From NCBI RefSeq assembly GCF_037977385.1, contig NZ_CP150277.1, positions 2,457,001 to 2,521,000 on the forward strand: 64,000 bases of DNA, given 5' to 3'. The notes under the pieces are model-generated. The model was not told the DNA's origin. It saw nothing but the letters and a program-made list of their open reading frames with translations, and did no database searches. Each line of letters starts with the position of its first letter. Position 1 is the stretch's first letter. Origin of the DNA: Terribacillus sp. FSL K6-0262. Its GTDB lineage: Bacteria > Bacillota > Bacilli > Bacillales > Amphibacillaceae. A program made the position numbers and the translations under genes. Positions 51,771-58,305 of this stretch are shown here, one piece after another.

Positions 51771-51804
51771 AAGGGCATCTGTCATGAAGACAGATGCCCT
51801 TTTT
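51771..51804. terminator. Terminator after the sugar ABC operon
   Basis: A 13-bp perfect stem AAGGGCATCTGTC/GACAGATGCCCTT with a five-base loop is followed by TTT. It also faces the convergent LXG operon. Confidence 0.92.
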
Positions 51805-51810
51805 AAGCAT

Positions 51811-52206
51811 TCAATTTTCTTTCAATCTGCTATCAGCTTCTTCTCGAAGTTTTTCATCTTCTGATGTTGCATAACCAACATGCAAAACTTCTTCAATATC
51901 TTCCCTGTTAAAAAAGATACTGTAATCAGGTCTGATATGCCCTTCCGGATACGGAACGGATATATAATCATAGAGCTTCTCAGAGCCGTACTCCTGCTGT
52001 TCATAACCATGAATCATAACCGGCTTTTCCGCTCCCTTTAACTTTACAACAGATCCTAACGGTATCAGTTTTTCTGTATCGACATTTTCTACAGTCGGTT
52101 GCTGTTCGGTAGATTCATCATCACCAGATGAAGTGGTGAATCCGACACTGCAGGCTGTGAGAAATATAGTGAAGATTATACAAACAATTAATGGTTTAAT
52201 CTTCAT
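51811..52206 (-). CDS. DUF4176 lipoprotein
   Basis: A 131-residue protein with a lipoprotein signal peptide (lipobox LTAC, Cys at about residue 19), a Ser/Glu-rich linker, and a DUF4176 domain: LIPLGSVVKLKGAEKPVMIHGYEQ, YDYISVPYPEGHI and FFNREDIEEVLHVGY. It is a paralogue of the gene just upstream with an added secretion signal. DUF4176 proteins are found in type VII secretion effector loci and their job is not known. An outer-face partner or immunity role is possible. It overlaps the previous gene by eleven bases. Confidence 0.8.
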   Translation of the reverse strand: MKIKPLIVCIIFTIFLTACSVGFTTSSGDDESTEQQPTVENVDTEKLIPLGSVVKLKGAEKPVMIHGYEQQEYGSEKLYDYISVPYPEGHIRPDYSIFFNREDIEEVLHVGYATSEDEKLREEADSRLKEN

Positions 52207-52492
52207 TTTTCATTCTGCTTTCAGTAAGGTCGTGTTCGATTTTTTCTTTTAACATTAATTCTGCTGGAGATTCAAAACCTTTAAACAGAACTTCCTTAAT
52301 CTGTTCACGATTAAAGAAAACATTAAAATCATCTGTCAAATTCCCCTCTGGATAGGGAACTGCTATGTAATCAAATATCATTTTTGACTTAGTCTGAATC
52401 TGATGTCTCCCATATATCATTAGTGGTTTTTTAACAGAATTAAGTCTGAGGACTGTGCCAATGGGTAGTAAGTCTTTATATGAATTACTCAT
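52196..52492 (-). CDS. DUF4176 protein
   Basis: A 98-residue cytoplasmic DUF4176 protein: LLPIGTVLRLNSVKKPLMIYGRHQ, FDYIAVPYPEGNLTDDFNVFFN, and a helical C-terminus. It is like the lipoprotein that follows but lacks the signal peptide. Its place in an LXG operon is a family trait, and it may be a chaperone or accessory factor. It overlaps both neighbours by 8 and 11 bases, so all three are translated as a unit. Confidence 0.8.
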   Translation of the reverse strand: MSNSYKDLLPIGTVLRLNSVKKPLMIYGRHQIQTKSKMIFDYIAVPYPEGNLTDDFNVFFNREQIKEVLFKGFESPAELMLKEKIEHDLTESRMKNED

Positions 52493-52730
52493 TATTAATC
52501 TTCTCCTTAGAAAAAGCTGTTCTTCGTATATATATTGCAGCTATACAAGTCCCGTAGAGAAAGATTGCAGCTATAGATAACGGTTCAATAATTCTAGGTA
52601 AATCTTCTTTTGGTACAACCCAGAAAATAAACGAGGCAAACATTGCGGTACCTAATATTCCTATTACAAGGGCGTAAATTAACAAAGCAGCACGAGTAGC
52701 CTTCATTAATTTTTTTTTATCTGATTTCAT
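52485..52730 (-). CDS. Two-helix membrane protein, candidate immunity protein
   Basis: An 81-residue protein with a basic N-terminus (KSDKKKLMKATR) and two hydrophobic helices (LLIYALVIGILGTAMFASFIF and PLSIAAIFLYGTCIAAIYI). No family is recognised. It is encoded directly after the LXG effector gene, where immunity genes usually lie. A membrane location would suit protection from a membrane-acting toxin. This is inference from position and topology. Confidence 0.6.
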   Translation of the reverse strand: MKSDKKKLMKATRAALLIYALVIGILGTAMFASFIFWVVPKEDLPRIIEPLSIAAIFLYGTCIAAIYIRRTAFSKEKINNE

Positions 52731-52751
52731 AAATGATAACTCCTTAGTTTT

Positions 52752-54191
52752 TTAATCCTCATCTTGTTCAACACCAATCTTTCCTCCAAAACCAATTCCA
52801 CCTGCAATGAAGAAACCGGTTTCTGTTCCTACTGAGCCACCAATACCTGCTCCGCCAATTATTAAATCAAAACCTAAATATGGATCCTCTTCAACTCCAA
52901 ACCATTCTTCTAAAGCGTCATATCCAAATAAATTAAAAGGTTCGAGTTTAAATTCAAATTTTAATACTGAAGCACTAGCACCTGCAGAGATAGTGTAATT
53001 TTCGATGTTTGTTTTTGCATCAGCATGAGGTAATTTGATAGTTGCTCCAAGCGGTGATTTTTCGTGAGAGATATCGATTTGGCCAATTCCGACTTCTCCT
53101 TTTATACCTTGGTTTTTACCGAGAAGTAAATATTCCAATTGACTCGTGTTACCATAAGGTACATCAAGATTTAAATCACTATAGAGTACTTTGGTTTTTA
53201 ATGCATCTTTTCCCATTTCCATTTTGGTTGTATCGACTATTGATGCAGACAAACTACCACTGAATATATTCCTCTTGTCATTGAATTCCAGTTTAGACTT
53301 TACATTGCCAACCCCATCATCGATTCCGTCTTCGATTTCAGTTTCATAAAGAAGTGGGCTTTCTTCTTTTTCTATCTCGCAAAAACCGAAAGAAGTACCT
53401 GCCAGTCCCTTCTCACCAGTATAAATATTATGACTTGTCAATTCTGTGCGCTTCATATATAGCTGCAATAATTCTTCCAATTGAGCTTCAGCAGAGAAAC
53501 TTTTATTTGTTACTGATCTCGATTCCAACGATTTTATAATAACTGAATGTGCCAGTGATAAATTTGACTGAAGCGGCGTATAATTCTCCACACTCAACGT
53601 ACCGTCCTTAACCATACTCTCCATTTCAGCTACATACTGCTCCATCAACTGAATGTCGTCTCCGACAGTTTCCAAACCTTCACTGTTTTTGGAATCAAAG
53701 TCGAAAAGATCCTCTATTGTGTCATCAGTTGCCTTTTGTGCTTCATCCATGCTGCTTGTAAAGTCGTCCGCGTTCAAATTACTAATGTGGACTATATCAC
53801 TTATGGAACTAAAAGTACTATTAGCTTCATCAACTAAATCAATTGCTTTTCTTTTTGTTCTGTCCAGACTATCTGTCAATTCTCCTTCTAAAAATTTCTG
53901 CATTATTACACCATTTTTATCTTCTTCCAAGTCTAAAGAAGTTTCCCGGAGTTTCCGAAGGCTGGACTTATAGTTTTCAAGCGAGACACAATAAAAAGAG
54001 ATGAAAGGAAGGTGGATATTTTGATAATAGATTCTGATGGAATTTCCTGTTGCCCCAGTGAAGGACTCTTGGTTACTTACAAGTTCAACTATAGCATTTC
54101 TCAGCTGGTCCATTTGATCTAATTTTGTGTCTAACTGGTTCAGCAGTTTATTAATGTCAGTATGTAGAGAGTGGTTATGTAATTGTTTCAC
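52752..54191 (-). CDS. LXG-domain type VII secretion effector
   Basis: A 479-residue protein. The N-terminal 220 residues are helical and resemble LXG domains of the YwqJ/YeeF type (LNQLDTKLDQMDQLRNAIVE, FTGATGNSIRIYYQNIHLPF), which serve secretion. The C-terminal 200 residues differ: alternating strand-like segments (KVLYSDLNLDVPYGN, GEVGIGQIDISHEKSPLGAT) then a Gly-rich tail GFDLIIGGAGIGGSVGTETG. No nuclease or deaminase motif is visible. Its GTG start overlaps the preceding stop by four bases. A membrane-active or unknown toxin is possible. The type VII apparatus itself is not in the window. Confidence 0.8.
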   Translation of the reverse strand: MKQLHNHSLHTDINKLLNQLDTKLDQMDQLRNAIVELVSNQESFTGATGNSIRIYYQNIHLPFISFYCVSLENYKSSLRKLRETSLDLEEDKNGVIMQKFLEGELTDSLDRTKRKAIDLVDEANSTFSSISDIVHISNLNADDFTSSMDEAQKATDDTIEDLFDFDSKNSEGLETVGDDIQLMEQYVAEMESMVKDGTLSVENYTPLQSNLSLAHSVIIKSLESRSVTNKSFSAEAQLEELLQLYMKRTELTSHNIYTGEKGLAGTSFGFCEIEKEESPLLYETEIEDGIDDGVGNVKSKLEFNDKRNIFSGSLSASIVDTTKMEMGKDALKTKVLYSDLNLDVPYGNTSQLEYLLLGKNQGIKGEVGIGQIDISHEKSPLGATIKLPHADAKTNIENYTISAGASASVLKFEFKLEPFNLFGYDALEEWFGVEEDPYLGFDLIIGGAGIGGSVGTETGFFIAGGIGFGGKIGVEQDED

Positions 54192-54472
54192 TTGGCCACT
54201 CCCTTTATCGAATTAGATAGAGAGTCATCCATCGTACGGAAAGATTCAATTGCTTTTAGAGCTGTTCCGTTATTTTGTGTCAGTAGCCGTTTATAAGCCT
54301 CAGTTACTTTTATCAATGCTTCATTATATTCCCTTACTTTCTTTACTGCGTTCAATTCATTCTTATCAGCAAATAATTGTAGGAAATCTGATTCAAGGCT
54401 GTCAGCACTGCTTTGAATGTTACTTATTAGTTTGTTTGCCTCCTCATAGGCGACTTTTATTTCTTCACTCAT
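54188..54472 (-). CDS. DUF5344 (YwqI-like) LXG partner
   Basis: A 94-residue helical hairpin protein with EEANKLISNIQSSADSLESDF and KVREYNEALIKVTEAYKRLL, near the WXG100 size and fold. YwqI of B. subtilis is 93 residues and sits between YwqH and the LXG protein YwqJ, as here. Such proteins bind the LXG domain and target it to the type VII apparatus. Confidence 0.75.
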   Translation of the reverse strand: MSEEIKVAYEEANKLISNIQSSADSLESDFLQLFADKNELNAVKKVREYNEALIKVTEAYKRLLTQNNGTALKAIESFRTMDDSLSNSIKGVAK

Positions 54473-54488
54473 TTGATAATAATCACCT

Positions 54489-54836
54489 TCACTTTTCTTT
54501 CTGGATACGCTGCTTTTCTTTTTCTATTCTAAGATCAGTAGTATGAATACTGGTTTGAATCGTACCGATTTTGTTATCGATCAACCTAATTGCCTCGTCT
54601 ATTTCATTTTGAGAGATTTTCTTAAAAGAACGTAAGGCTTTATCACGTTTCTCGTCAAAATTATCTGCTGTACTTCCTTTCCATGCATTGGAGGGAAGTG
54701 CAGGTTCAGTAATGGTTCTGCTATGCTGAACCATGTCAATTTGAAGGGATTCTATAGAGGATTTAACGTAACGAAGACGTGACAGCTGCTCTAACTTATC
54801 AGCACGGCCAGCCATTAAAGATGCCAGTAAGGACAT
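54489..54836 (-). CDS. DUF5082 (YwqH-like) LXG partner
   Basis: A 115-residue helical protein, first gene of the LXG operon. It has SSIESLQIDMVQHSRTITEP, a WKGSTADNFDEKRD segment recalling the WXG turn, and a long C-terminal coiled coil (IGTIQTSIHTTDLRIEKEKQ). YwqH-type proteins act with the DUF5344 partner on the LXG effector. TAGTAGGTG precedes the ATG. A TATACT -10-like element lies about 40 bp upstream. Confidence 0.75.
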   Translation of the reverse strand: MSLLASLMAGRADKLEQLSRLRYVKSSIESLQIDMVQHSRTITEPALPSNAWKGSTADNFDEKRDKALRSFKKISQNEIDEAIRLIDNKIGTIQTSIHTTDLRIEKEKQRIQKEK

Positions 54837-55150: not shown

Positions 55151-56011
55151 GTGAATGGCGGTTTGACACTGCTTCGGGAAAGCTTGCCCTCGATCAAGCC
55201 TTCTGAAAAAAACGCAGCAAGCTACATACTTGCCCATCCAGCTGAGGTGGTGACGCTTTCGGTGCAGGAGCTGGCAGTGAAAAGCGGGTCGAGTGAGGCA
55301 GCCGTTATCCGTCTTTGTAAATCGATAGGTGTGACCGGGTATCGGGAATTGAAGCTGAAGATTGCAGGAGATTTACAAAATGAAAACGTTAACAAAGGGG
55401 CGTTTGATGAAATTGAGCCGAACGATACGGTTGAACATTTAATCGAAGCGATGGCAGAAAAGCATATCCAGTCGATCGATCAGACGATGCAAGTGAATGA
55501 TGCCAAGGCGCTTGAAAGGGCAGTGACTATGATATCGAGAGCGCGAAAGATCGATTTTTATGGAGTCGGAGCCTCTTATCTCGTGGCTCAGGATGGCGAG
55601 CAGAAATTCGGGCGGATCGGTAAATGGTGTACGGCCTACAGTGATGCGCATCAGCAATTGGCGTCGGCTGCGAATCTCACATTCGGGGATGTGGCTTTTG
55701 CAATCAGCTATTCCGGGGAAACCGGCCAATTGCTGCAGGTTTTGCAGCGAGCCAGAGATGCAGGGGCAACTACCATCGTGATGACGAAGCTGGGGCCGAA
55801 TCGGCTGCAGCAGCTGGCTGATATCCAGCTGTTTACAGTGGCGAAAGAGGCGCGCATCCGCAGTGCAGCCACAAGCTCCCGGATTGTCCAAATGTACTTG
55901 ATGGATATCATCTATACGGCAGTGGCGGGACGCGACTATGAGCATACGATCGAGGCTTTGGAAAAATCACGGCAGGCGATTCAGCAAGCATTTCAAACAG
56001 AGCAAAAGTGA
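55151..56011 (+). CDS. murR: RpiR-family regulator of MurNAc genes
   Basis: A 286-residue RpiR protein with the N-terminal HTH (SSEAAVIRLCKSIGVTGYRELKLKIAGDL) and a SIS domain (FYGVGASYLVAQDGEQKFG, AISYSGETGQLLQVL). MurNAc 6-phosphate is the likely effector, since murQ follows 9 bp later. The start is GTG with AGGTGAT upstream. In B. subtilis murR lies after murQ; here it leads the operon. Confidence 0.88.
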   Translation: MNGGLTLLRESLPSIKPSEKNAASYILAHPAEVVTLSVQELAVKSGSSEAAVIRLCKSIGVTGYRELKLKIAGDLQNENVNKGAFDEIEPNDTVEHLIEAMAEKHIQSIDQTMQVNDAKALERAVTMISRARKIDFYGVGASYLVAQDGEQKFGRIGKWCTAYSDAHQQLASAANLTFGDVAFAISYSGETGQLLQVLQRARDAGATTIVMTKLGPNRLQQLADIQLFTVAKEARIRSAATSSRIVQMYLMDIIYTAVAGRDYEHTIEALEKSRQAIQQAFQTEQK

Positions 56012-56020
56012 GGGAAAAAA

Positions 56021-56911
56021 ATGCTGGAGAAATTAACGACAGAAAAGCGGAACGAAAGCACGATGCAGCTGGATCAGCTTTCTACGAGGGAAGTCCTTCA
56101 GCTGATGAACAAGGAAGATCGGACAGTGCCCGAAGCGGTGGAAGCAGCCCTGCCGGCAATCGAAGCTGCGGTGCAGCAGGTGATTGCGACTTTCCAGGCT
56201 GGCGGCAGACTTATCTATACGGGCGCAGGGACCAGCGGCAGACTCGGGATTTTGGATGCGGTCGAATGTCCGCCCACATTCAGCACACCGGAAGAGATGG
56301 TGCAAGGTTTGCTGGCAGGCGGTATGTCTGCATTCCGAAAGGCGAAGGAGGGAGCGGAGGATAATCCGGAGCTTGGGGCGAGAGAGCTGGAGGAAATCGG
56401 ATTATCGGCAAAAGATACCATAATTGGCATTGCTGCAAGCGGCAGGACGCCATATGTGATTGGGGCGCTGGATTATGCGGCGGCTGTGGGTGCGGCAACA
56501 GTCAGCATTGCTTGCAATAAAGGAGCGGCTATATCTAAGCATGCGAAGATCAGCATTGAGGTAGAAACCGGTCCGGAAATACTGACAGGATCGACAAGAC
56601 TGAAAGCCGGAACAGCGCAGAAGCTTGTGCTCAATATGATTTCCACTGCCAGCATGGTAGGTGTCGGTAAAGTATATAAGAACCTAATGGTAGATGTGAA
56701 GCCGACGAATGACAAGCTCCGGGAGCGTGCCAAACGCATCATCATGGAAGCGACCGGTGCGGATTATGCGTCAGCTGAAAAAGTCCTGGAGCAAGCAGAT
56801 GGTCAAGTCAAAACAGCGATTATCATGTTATTGCTCGATGTCCCGAAAGAGGAGGCCGAGGTGAAGCTGCATGATGCAGGAGGATTTGTCCGTACAGCGA
56901 TAAAAGCGTAA
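56021..56911 (+). CDS. murQ: N-acetylmuramic acid 6-phosphate etherase
   Basis: A 296-residue SIS-domain lyase. It has LSTREVLQLMNKEDRTVPEAVEAALPAIE at the N-terminus, GGRLIYTGAGTSGRLGILDAVECPPTFST, GIAASGRTPYVIGALDYA and STRLKAGTAQKLVLNMIST. It splits the lactyl ether of MurNAc 6-phosphate, giving GlcNAc 6-phosphate and D-lactate, a key step in cell wall recovery. GAGGG precedes the ATG. Confidence 0.95.
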   Translation: MLEKLTTEKRNESTMQLDQLSTREVLQLMNKEDRTVPEAVEAALPAIEAAVQQVIATFQAGGRLIYTGAGTSGRLGILDAVECPPTFSTPEEMVQGLLAGGMSAFRKAKEGAEDNPELGARELEEIGLSAKDTIIGIAASGRTPYVIGALDYAAAVGAATVSIACNKGAAISKHAKISIEVETGPEILTGSTRLKAGTAQKLVLNMISTASMVGVGKVYKNLMVDVKPTNDKLRERAKRIIMEATGADYASAEKVLEQADGQVKTAIIMLLLDVPKEEAEVKLHDAGGFVRTAIKA

Positions 56912-56928
56912 AAGGGAGGAATCTAAAG

Positions 56929-58305
56929 ATGGCGAAGATGAACCAAATGGCAGAAGCCATTCTCCGCGAAGTGGGCGGAGAACAGAACATCATTTCTTTG
57001 ACACACTGCATGACACGGGTCCGTTTGCATGTGAAGGATGAGACACAGGTCGATTTTGATGGGCTGAAACGAATTGATGGTGTCATGGGTGTGGTAGCGG
57101 ATGATACGATCCAGATTGTGGTCGGTCCTGGTACTGTCAATAAAGTCTCTGATGAAATCAGTCGCATCACCGGGCTCGGGGTAGGGGAAGAAGCAGCGGA
57201 AATCGATGATCTTACATTCGAGGAGAAAGCGCAAATCAAGTTGGAGAACATGAAGGAAAAGAATAAGACACCCATCAAGTTCCTGCTGCGACGTATCGGC
57301 AACATCTTCATCCCATTAATCCCTGGCTTGATTGCTTCTGGCATCATCAATGGCGGTGTCAGCTTTGCCGTCAATGCCGGCGCAGATCCTACACTCGCTA
57401 TCGTCCAGATCCTGCAGCTGATCGGCGGCAGTCTGTTCAGCTTCCTGGCGATACTTGTGGGCTGGAATACGGCGAAGGAATTCGGCGGTTCCCCGGTGCT
57501 GGGGGCCATCGCGGGTATGATTCTTTTCAATCCGGCATTGGCGAATATCACGTTATTCGGGGAAGCGCTTGTTCCGGGGCGGGGCGGACTGTTCGGCGTC
57601 ATCTTTGCGGCGTGGCTGATGAGTTTCATCGAGAAGCGCGTACGAAAAATCATGCCCGGCAGCATTGATATCATTTTTACTCCTATCTTGACTGTTTTGT
57701 TTGTCGGTATTGCATCTCTGCTCGTCATCATGCCTGTTGCCGGGGTACTGTCAGAGGGAATTACAACCGGAATCAACGCTGTCCTGGATATCGGCGGTGT
57801 CGTTGCGGGGGCGATACTTGCCGGATTCTTCCTCCCGCTTGTCATGGTCGGGCTGCATCACGGTTTGACGCCGATTCATGTGGAGCTCATCCAGACATTC
57901 ACATTCACTGCTTTGCTTCCCATCCTCGCGATGGCAGGAGGCGGTCAGGTCGGGGCTTCCATTGCCATTTTTGTCAAAACTCGCAATAAACGTCTGCGGA
58001 ATATCATCAAGGGTGCTTTGCCGGCAGGCTTCCTCGGAATCGGGGAACCGCTTTTATACGGTGTCACCCTGCCGCTTGGACGTCCATTTGTAACGGCTTG
58101 TCTCGGTGCTGCCATAGGGGGAGCGACGCAGGCATTGTTTGCCACAGGAGCCACTGCCATCGGTGTGTCCGGGCTTTCCTTGACACCGCTCATTGCAGAA
58201 GGGAAATATCTGCAGTACTTGATTGGTATCTTTGTCGCTTATATTGCTGGATTCCTGTTTACTTATTTCTTCGGGTTCAAGGAAGAGATGGCAAAGGATA
58301 TATAA
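56929..58305 (+). CDS. murP: PTS N-acetylmuramic acid EIIBC
   Basis: A 458-residue EIIBC of the glucose family. The EIIB domain has Cys27 in LTHCMTRVRLHVKDE, and the EIIC domain has about ten helices with PLVMVGLHHGLTPIHVELIQ and GIGEPLLYGVTLPLGRPFV. There is no EIIA domain, so a general EIIA-Glc is needed. It brings in MurNAc as the 6-phosphate for MurQ. AAAGGGAGGA precedes the ATG. Confidence 0.92.
   Translation: MAKMNQMAEAILREVGGEQNIISLTHCMTRVRLHVKDETQVDFDGLKRIDGVMGVVADDTIQIVVGPGTVNKVSDEISRITGLGVGEEAAEIDDLTFEEKAQIKLENMKEKNKTPIKFLLRRIGNIFIPLIPGLIASGIINGGVSFAVNAGADPTLAIVQILQLIGGSLFSFLAILVGWNTAKEFGGSPVLGAIAGMILFNPALANITLFGEALVPGRGGLFGVIFAAWLMSFIEKRVRKIMPGSIDIIFTPILTVLFVGIASLLVIMPVAGVLSEGITTGINAVLDIGGVVAGAILAGFFLPLVMVGLHHGLTPIHVELIQTFTFTALLPILAMAGGGQVGASIAIFVKTRNKRLRNIIKGALPAGFLGIGEPLLYGVTLPLGRPFVTACLGAAIGGATQALFATGATAIGVSGLSLTPLIAEGKYLQYLIGIFVAYIAGFLFTYFFGFKEEMAKDI

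What the first reader, a model, noticed from the sequence alone, without database searches (positions are those of the whole stretch)
51811..54836. Six-gene LXG effector operon with a candidate membrane immunity protein
Overlapping or closely spaced minus-strand genes encode a DUF5082 protein, a DUF5344 protein, an LXG protein, an 81-residue two-helix membrane protein and two DUF4176 proteins. The order matches ywqHIJ-type loci. The segment is clearly richer in AT than its neighbours, which suggests transfer. The membrane protein has no recognised family and lies where immunity genes usually are.
Basis: partly seen in the sequence, partly recalled or inferred. Interest (0 to 1): 0.7.

Follow-up and report, generated by a model that had tools for sequence, protein, structure and literature searches.

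The report
Toxin operon with exported chaperone-like shield
A bacterial operon for a secreted toxin carries, besides a small membrane protein that looks like the antidote, a copy of the toxin's helper protein that seems to have been moved to the cell surface, and relatives that lost the toxin often keep these two genes, as expected of protection genes.

Summary
The AT-rich six-gene operon is real: YwqH-like/DUF5082, DUF5344, LXG effector, 81-aa two-helix protein (TM81), two DUF4176 proteins. Among 141 distinct DUF4176 frames held, 18 proteins carry a lipobox; 17 lie in or by this operon type. In 13 related loci with a broken or missing toxin, an intact TM81-family frame remains in 12, lipidated DUF4176 in 10, cytosolic DUF4176 in 3, though the cytosolic gene lies between the other two. 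G285 and G433 keep the pair with no LXG or YukC/EssB match. dN/dS is mostly 0.1-0.3. Orphan TM81 alleles resemble toxin-bearing sister genomes. Toxin domain, TM81 and cytosolic DUF4176 diverge as one block between window and G006; LXG and lipoprotein do not. Best reading: TM81 is cognate immunity, the lipoprotein an allele-independent second protector outside, the cytosolic copy the chaperone. Evidence is comparative; nothing was tested at the bench, and some loci (G003, G001, G230) do not keep the lipoprotein intact.

The parts
54489..54836 (-). YwqH-like/DUF5082 protein, 115 aa, Lap4-type LXG partner
   Evidence: ORF; Pfam PF16888 1.4e-12; role from PMC10765036 passage
54188..54472 (-). DUF5344 protein, 94 aa, Lap3-type LXG partner
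   Evidence: ORF; Pfam PF17279 4.2e-14; role from PMC10765036 passage
52752..54191 (-). LXG effector, 479 aa, GTG start; LXG domain about residues 4-200, linker to about 284, glycine-rich C-terminal domain about 285-479 (52755-53339)
   Evidence: Pfam PF04740 3.3e-46; C-domain without Pfam or PDB match, conserved in six genomes
52485..52730 (-). TM81: 81-aa two-helix membrane protein, likely cognate immunity protein
   Evidence: Hydropathy; orphan copies; allele matches; dN/dS
52196..52492 (-). Cytosolic DUF4176 protein, 98 aa, likely Ltc chaperone of the toxin
   Evidence: Pfam PF13780 1.1e-24; no signal peptide; lost in most toxin-damaged loci
51811..52206 (-). DUF4176 lipoprotein, 131 aa; signal peptide residues 1-18, lipobox Cys19, DUF4176 domain residues 47-119
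   Evidence: ORF; Pfam PF13780 1.2e-24; lipobox Cys in all 16 aligned relatives; profile matches PDB 9dcs 6.4e-9
52150..53570 (-). Approximate extent of the divergent block (linker, toxin domain, TM81, cytosolic DUF4176) between window and G006
   Evidence: Sliding identity; dS; quartets
51771..51801 (.). 13-bp perfect inverted repeat with 5-nt loop just after the last gene, terminator-like
   Evidence: not reported by the terminator scan

Best explanation
A type VIIb-secreted LXG toxin operon with protection split by compartment. DUF5082 and DUF5344 pair with the LXG domain for export (family knowledge). The cytosolic DUF4176 holds the toxin in the producer (family knowledge) and tends to be lost with it (shown here). 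The C-terminal domain probably attacks the membrane of neighbours from outside (inferred from the membrane and lipoprotein location of its partners and its glycine-rich end). TM81 is the cognate, allele-specific membrane immunity protein (comparative evidence). The DUF4176 lipoprotein, a duplicate of the chaperone with a signal peptide, sits at the outer face and helps neutralise incoming toxin, probably through a part shared by all toxin alleles (retention shown, binding inferred).
For: Of 13 loci with broken or missing toxin: TM81-family frame intact in 12, lipidated DUF4176 in 10, cytosolic DUF4176 in 3; of the 7 with no toxin domain left 6, 5 and 0. The lost gene lies between the two kept ones; remnants of it in G433, G491, G001. 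G285 and G433 keep the pair with no LXG and no YukC/EssB match. In G687 the toxin domain on a non-LXG protein is followed by a two-helix protein and a DUF4176 lipoprotein, with no cytosolic DUF4176, Lap3 or Lap4 match in the 14 kb read. Lipoprotein dN/dS 0.10-0.25 in four pairs of such genomes. Orphan TM81 81% identical to the window in G003, 71% to G006 in G001, 74-78% to G484 in G285/G310. EsxX precedent: soluble ExiAB go with the toxin, membrane ExiCD occur as orphans (PMC12744356).
Against: The lipoprotein does not diverge with the toxin block, so it is not a classical cognate antidote. It is damaged in G001, G503 and G260 and absent at G003, the second G295 locus and G464, which keep TM81 alone. 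G230 keeps TM81 with a cytosolic DUF4176 and no lipoprotein or toxin. In the DUF4176 tree the lipoprotein of G432 groups with cytosolic partners (93/84), so a single origin is not clean. G257 keeps the whole operon with no YukC match. Losses are few and from related genomes. Toxicity, location and binding are untested; both structure models failed. In group B Streptococcus a Tm gene next to BltA did not protect (PMC11481500 passages).
Confidence: 0.55

Rival explanations
1. The DUF4176 lipoprotein is an export or folding helper that receives the LXG toxin on the outer face; only TM81 is immunity.
For: It belongs to a chaperone family (PMC13355648 passage) and keeps the same ancestry as the LXG domain when the block between them differs. 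TM81 alone is kept at G003, the second G295 locus and G464.
Against: Kept in G285 and G433 with no LXG and no YukC match, and beside a non-LXG toxin in G687.
Confidence: 0.25
2. The lipoprotein is a leftover duplicate without a present role; retention is chance.
For: Last gene of the operon, so end deletions could spare it; small number of independent losses; damaged in three loci.
Against: dN/dS 0.10-0.25 in four pairs of toxin-damaged or toxin-less genomes, and the gene between it and TM81 is lost while both flanks stay.
Confidence: 0.1
3. The cytosolic DUF4176 is the main immunity protein, as the soluble pair ExiAB is for cytosolic EsxX.
For: It diverges together with the toxin domain and TM81.
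Against: Intact in only 3 of 13 toxin-damaged loci and 0 of 7 without toxin domain. Published relatives are chaperones.
Confidence: 0.05

Closest known systems
EsxX-ExiABCD of Staphylococcus aureus ST398 (PMC12744356; abstract and passages read)
   Same: LXG toxin with small helical partners, soluble partner that goes with the toxin gene, membrane-located immunity that occurs as orphans; glycine-rich toxin end.
   Different: ExiC and ExiD are both polytopic membrane proteins; here one is a two-helix protein and the other a DUF4176 lipoprotein. The toxin end here has alternating glycines (GxGxGxKxG), not a helix zipper pattern (inference from sequence).
Ltc (DUF4176) chaperones (PMC13355648 passage; primary paper not held)
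   Same: DUF4176 domain beside an LXG toxin; profile of the lipoproteins matches PDB 9dcs.
   Different: Described Ltc proteins stay in the cytoplasm; this one has a signal peptide and lipobox and is kept without the toxin.
TslA-TilA (PMC10730906; passages read)
   Same: T7SS toxin whose immunity protein is an extracellular lipoprotein.
   Different: TilA is DUF576, the toxin is a lipase with reversed domain order; no chaperone relationship.
BltA locus of group B Streptococcus (PMC11481500; passages read)
   Same: Two helical partners, LXG toxin, Tm protein, DUF4176 protein in this order.
   Different: One DUF4176 protein is described there, no lipoprotein is mentioned in the passages read; the Tm protein did not protect in the assay used.
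ywqHIJKL of Bacillus subtilis (PMC8321402 passages read; gene roles partly recalled)
   Same: YwqH-like and DUF5344 genes before the LXG gene.
   Different: The paper notes a deaminase-like motif in YwqJ; its downstream genes were not compared here.

Membership tests
LXG polymorphic toxin operon (T7SSb) | N-terminal LXG domain over the Pfam cut-off | tested here: met
   PF04740 158 bits, cut-off 26.5
LXG polymorphic toxin operon (T7SSb) | Small helical Lap-type partners upstream | tested here: met
   PF16888 and PF17279 over cut-off
LXG polymorphic toxin operon (T7SSb) | T7SSb machinery in the genome | tested here: met
   YukC/EssB in G000, 2.5e-131
LXG polymorphic toxin operon (T7SSb) | Variable toxin domain exchanged with its partners | tested here: met
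   Divergence block; quartet support for the whole block 874 of 1000, weak per gene
LXG polymorphic toxin operon (T7SSb) | C-terminal domain is toxic | not testable with these tools
   needs expression assay
DUF4176/Ltc chaperone (131-aa protein) | DUF4176 domain over the cut-off | tested here: met
   PF13780 86.5 bits, cut-off 25
DUF4176/Ltc chaperone (131-aa protein) | Cytoplasmic protein | tested here: not met
   Signal peptide and lipobox in sequence; location itself not measured
DUF4176/Ltc chaperone (98-aa protein) | DUF4176 domain, no export signal, beside LXG gene | tested here: met
Immunity protein (TM81, DUF4176 lipoprotein) | Encoded next to the toxin gene | tested here: met
Immunity protein (TM81, DUF4176 lipoprotein) | Kept as orphan without the toxin | tested here: met
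   TM81 6 of 7, lipoprotein 5 of 7 loci without toxin domain; TM81 alone at three further sites
Immunity protein (TM81, DUF4176 lipoprotein) | Diverges together with the toxin allele | tested here: inconclusive
   met for TM81, not met for the lipoprotein
Immunity protein (TM81, DUF4176 lipoprotein) | Neutralises the toxin | not testable with these tools
   needs co-expression or competition assay

The most novel reading that the evidence does not exclude
A secretion chaperone was duplicated, given a lipoprotein signal and turned into a surface-displayed immunity protein: it grips incoming toxin by the part that the cytosolic chaperone binds, works on all alleles of this toxin family, and is kept even by bacteria without the secretion system. 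The separate lipidated DUF4176 in G376 would make this a repeated route from chaperone to immunity.
Probability: 0.4. Interest if true: 0.8.

Novelty: new variant of a known kind. Interest (0 to 1): 0.6.

Why it matters
DUF4176 proteins were only recently described as cytoplasmic chaperones of LXG toxins. A lipid-anchored version that can outlive the toxin suggests where some immunity proteins come from, and that a single membrane protein may fail in protection assays for lack of a partner. Natural orphan alleles matched to toxin alleles in sister species make the model directly testable, and the toxin domain has no Pfam entry.

Tried and rejected
AlphaFold of the LXG protein (mean pLDDT 36) and of its C-terminal domain (mean pLDDT 31), two sequences each, were too poor; no fold search was run. 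The toxin-domain profile found nothing in the PDB or Pfam. No toxin-domain match in plasmids or phages, none for the G687 protein in plasmids, none for toxin domain or lipoprotein in viral contigs. The lipoprotein query found two Enterococcus plasmid matches at 38% identity over the DUF4176 part only. A link between the toxin domain and the glycine-rich fragment of G376 was not supported (hhalign probability 2). TM81 as a holin: only sub-threshold Pfam hits. The promoter scan found fewer sites than shuffles (9 against 12.5) and was not used. I considered that TM81 alone suffices (rival 1) and kept it as a rival.
Full report
WHAT IS THERE. The six minus-strand ORFs are as described: 54836-54489 YwqH-like/DUF5082, 54472-54188 DUF5344, 54191-52752 LXG (479 aa, GTG start), 52730-52485 81-aa membrane protein (TM81), 52492-52196 DUF4176 (98 aa), 52206-51811 DUF4176 (131 aa). 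Pfam agrees for all but TM81, which reaches no cut-off. Neighbouring genes overlap by 4-11 bp or lie 16 and 21 bp apart, and a 13-bp perfect inverted repeat follows the last stop. GC is 0.364 against 0.507 on both sides, the most AT-rich 3 kb of the window. In G484, G257 and G404 the operon is only 1-2 points below its surroundings. The closest named relative is Terribacillus saccharophilus 7517-1 (L001, 64% identity), whose contig has the same length as G006 contig 14. The window's genome has two more LXG genes and the T7SSb gene yukC/essB.

THE OVERLOOKED PIECE. The last gene has a charged start, a hydrophobic stretch and a lipobox (LTAC, Cys19), then a linker and a complete DUF4176 domain. 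I collected DUF4176 hits from three family searches: 10 of 10 genomes of the genus, 60 of 397 of the order, 36 of 398 of the class; the draws overlap. Much of the DNA around the hits was then fetched. In the DNA held there were 141 distinct DUF4176 frames; 19 pass my lipobox rule, which are 18 proteins since one is a fragment of another. Some weak hits were not fetched, so this is not a census, and the rule is mine, not a trained predictor. Seventeen of the 18 lie in or beside this operon type or its remnants; the eighteenth is in G376. In a 107-row tree (76 columns, many forks unresolved) the 17-type group falls with its cytosolic partners in one clade of 24 rows (99/98), which also holds G687's lipoprotein and G230's cytosolic protein; the G376 lipoprotein falls elsewhere. 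Most lipoproteins group together (12 rows, 87/88), but that of G432 groups with cytosolic rows (93/84) and that of G687 is unresolved, so one clean origin is not shown. Of the lipoprotein genes at these loci 16 were aligned, and all 16 have the lipobox Cys; copies in G001, G503 and G260, damaged at the start or broken, were left out of that alignment.

THE TOXIN DOMAIN. Residues about 285-479 are glycine-rich with no Pfam or PDB relative. The profile of linker plus domain matches 12 of 397 genomes of the order, five with an intact full frame (G000, G002, G257, G404, G484); the G530 match is 30 residues long and may be chance. G006, outside that draw, is also intact. Within the family it is in 3 of 159 genomes. 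In G687, same class but another family and order, the domain sits on a 354-aa protein without a Pfam LXG match, after a 100-aa protein with a sub-threshold WXG100 match, and is followed by an 85-aa two-helix protein (weak TM81 match, 1e-4) and a 109-aa DUF4176 lipoprotein. In the 14 kb read no cytosolic DUF4176, Lap3 or Lap4 match was found. The other 10 genomes of that family examined lack the domain.

WHAT IS KEPT WHEN THE TOXIN GOES. I scanned 29 loci with models of the parts. In the six with an intact LXG toxin all parts are present. In 13 loci the toxin is broken (G268, G432, G190, G392, G433, G260) or has no detectable C-domain (G491, G285, G310, G503, G445, G335, G001). A full-length TM81-family frame is present in 12 of 13 (not G503; in G260 only the second copy), a complete lipidated DUF4176 in 10 (not G260, G503, G001; that of G392 has a small internal duplication), a complete cytosolic DUF4176 in 3 (G268, G432, G190; G392's is shortened inside). 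In the seven without a toxin domain the numbers are 6, 5 and 0; the LXG N-domain and DUF5344 are 0 of 7, the YwqH-like gene complete in 1 (G310). The cytosolic gene lies between TM81 and the lipoprotein, so one deletion from an end cannot explain the pattern. Remnants of it are visible in G433, G491 and G001; in G285, G310, G335 and G445 47-114 bp lie between the kept genes. Three more sites keep TM81 alone: G003 at the window's own chromosomal site (L215), a second G295 locus (L216), G464 (L217). Against the pattern, G230 has TM81 with a cytosolic DUF4176 and neither lipoprotein nor toxin. Many of these genomes are congeners, so the independent losses are perhaps four or five (my estimate). 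TM81 itself matches 23 of 397 genomes of the order (the G324 match is weak, inside a 497-aa frame).

NO SECRETION SYSTEM NEEDED. Of 24 genomes tested, 17 have a YukC/EssB match and 18 an LXG match, 17 over the cut-off. G285 and G433 have neither and keep TM81 and the lipoprotein. G464, G260 and G376 also have neither; G464 keeps TM81 alone. G310 has YukC but no LXG. So an export-helper role does not explain the lipoprotein in G285 and G433. It remains possible in genomes with other LXG genes. G257 carries the whole operon with no YukC match, so keeping genes is not by itself proof of use.

SELECTION AND ALLELES. dN/dS (Nei-Gojobori, codon bootstrap) of the lipoprotein between genomes with broken or missing toxin is 0.12 (G285/G310), 0.22 (G445/G335), 0.10 (G433/G491) and 0.25 (G433/G392). 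TM81 in the same pairs: 0.25, 0.31 (interval up to 1.98, uninformative), 0.45, 0.30; second copy in G285/G310 0.11; the two copies of G295/G268 0.21 and 0.26; G003 orphan against window 0.20. Branches are not separated by toxin state, and some partners have a T7SS. Orphan TM81 proteins resemble one toxin-bearing relative each: G003 81% to the window (54% or less to the other references), G001 71% to G006, G285 and G310 74 and 78% to G484, G445 and G335 61% to G257.

A BLOCK OF DIFFERENT ANCESTRY. Between window and G006 DNA identity is 0.82-0.95 across the two front genes and the LXG domain, 0.42-0.82 through linker, toxin domain, TM81 and cytosolic DUF4176, and 0.84-0.94 in the lipoprotein domain (the neighbouring regulator gene ranges 0.71-0.90). 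dS is 0.34-0.44 in the front, 1.1-2.1 in the block, 0.34 in the lipoprotein. Distance quartets join window and G006 for the front (999 of 1000) and the lipoprotein (874), but G006 and G002 for the whole block (874); the block genes singly are weaker (481, 796, 798). So toxin domain, TM81 and chaperone appear to be exchanged together. This fits TM81 and chaperone as toxin-specific and the lipoprotein as general; it is also the best argument that the lipoprotein serves the LXG part.

HOW IT PROBABLY WORKS. DUF5082/DUF5344 proteins bind the LXG domain and are thought to aid export (PMC9600955, PMC10765036; passages). DUF4176 (Ltc) proteins stabilise the toxin and stay in the cytoplasm (PMC13355648, passage; the primary papers are not held). 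EsxX is the closest worked example: soluble ExiAB accompany the toxin gene, membrane ExiCD protect from outside, both being needed, and occur as orphans (PMC12744356, abstract and passages). I read this operon the same way: TM81 and the lipidated DUF4176 in the ExiCD position, the cytosolic DUF4176 near the ExiAB position. The conserved glycines at the toxin end alternate, which suggests strands rather than a GxxxG helix; this is inference only.

WHAT IS IN PRINT. Searches: DUF4176 with lipoprotein (2 papers, words used apart), LXG with immunity and lipoprotein (16 listed, two opened), DUF4176 with immunity protein (8 listed), LXG with orphan immunity (8 listed), Ltc terms, Terribacillus with type VII secretion (none). 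No listing or passage I saw describes a lipidated DUF4176. Two primary DUF4176 papers are not in the library, so this is no proof of absence.

Noticed in passing
L104:9811-10335, L105:11685-12188, L106:2372-2896, L090:4964-5497: A 167-177-aa four-helix protein made of two TM81-like halves lies near the lipoprotein gene in G002, G006, G001 and G190; the window has no such gene after the operon.
   Followed up: partly
L106:2372-4427 (G001): At the window's chromosomal site G001 keeps two full TM81 genes, a TM81 fragment, the four-helix protein and a DUF4176 gene without signal peptide, but no toxin: an immunity-array-like remnant.
   Followed up: partly
L120:4807-5831 (G376): A lipidated DUF4176 gene convergent to a cytosolic DUF4176 gene and a 130-aa glycine-rich fragment; possibly a second origin of lipidated DUF4176.
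   Followed up: partly
L091 (G257): Complete operon with an intact toxin frame in a single-contig genome without a YukC/EssB match.
   Followed up: no
L110-L113, L116, L117, L139, L140: DUF4176 domains at the end of frames of 230-261 aa with a long N-terminal extension and no lipobox, in several families of the order.
   Followed up: no
window 55151-58305: The operon lies beside an RpiR-type regulator, a MurQ-like gene and a PTS transporter (names recalled); the same neighbours are seen at the site in G001, G002, G003 and G006.
   Followed up: partly
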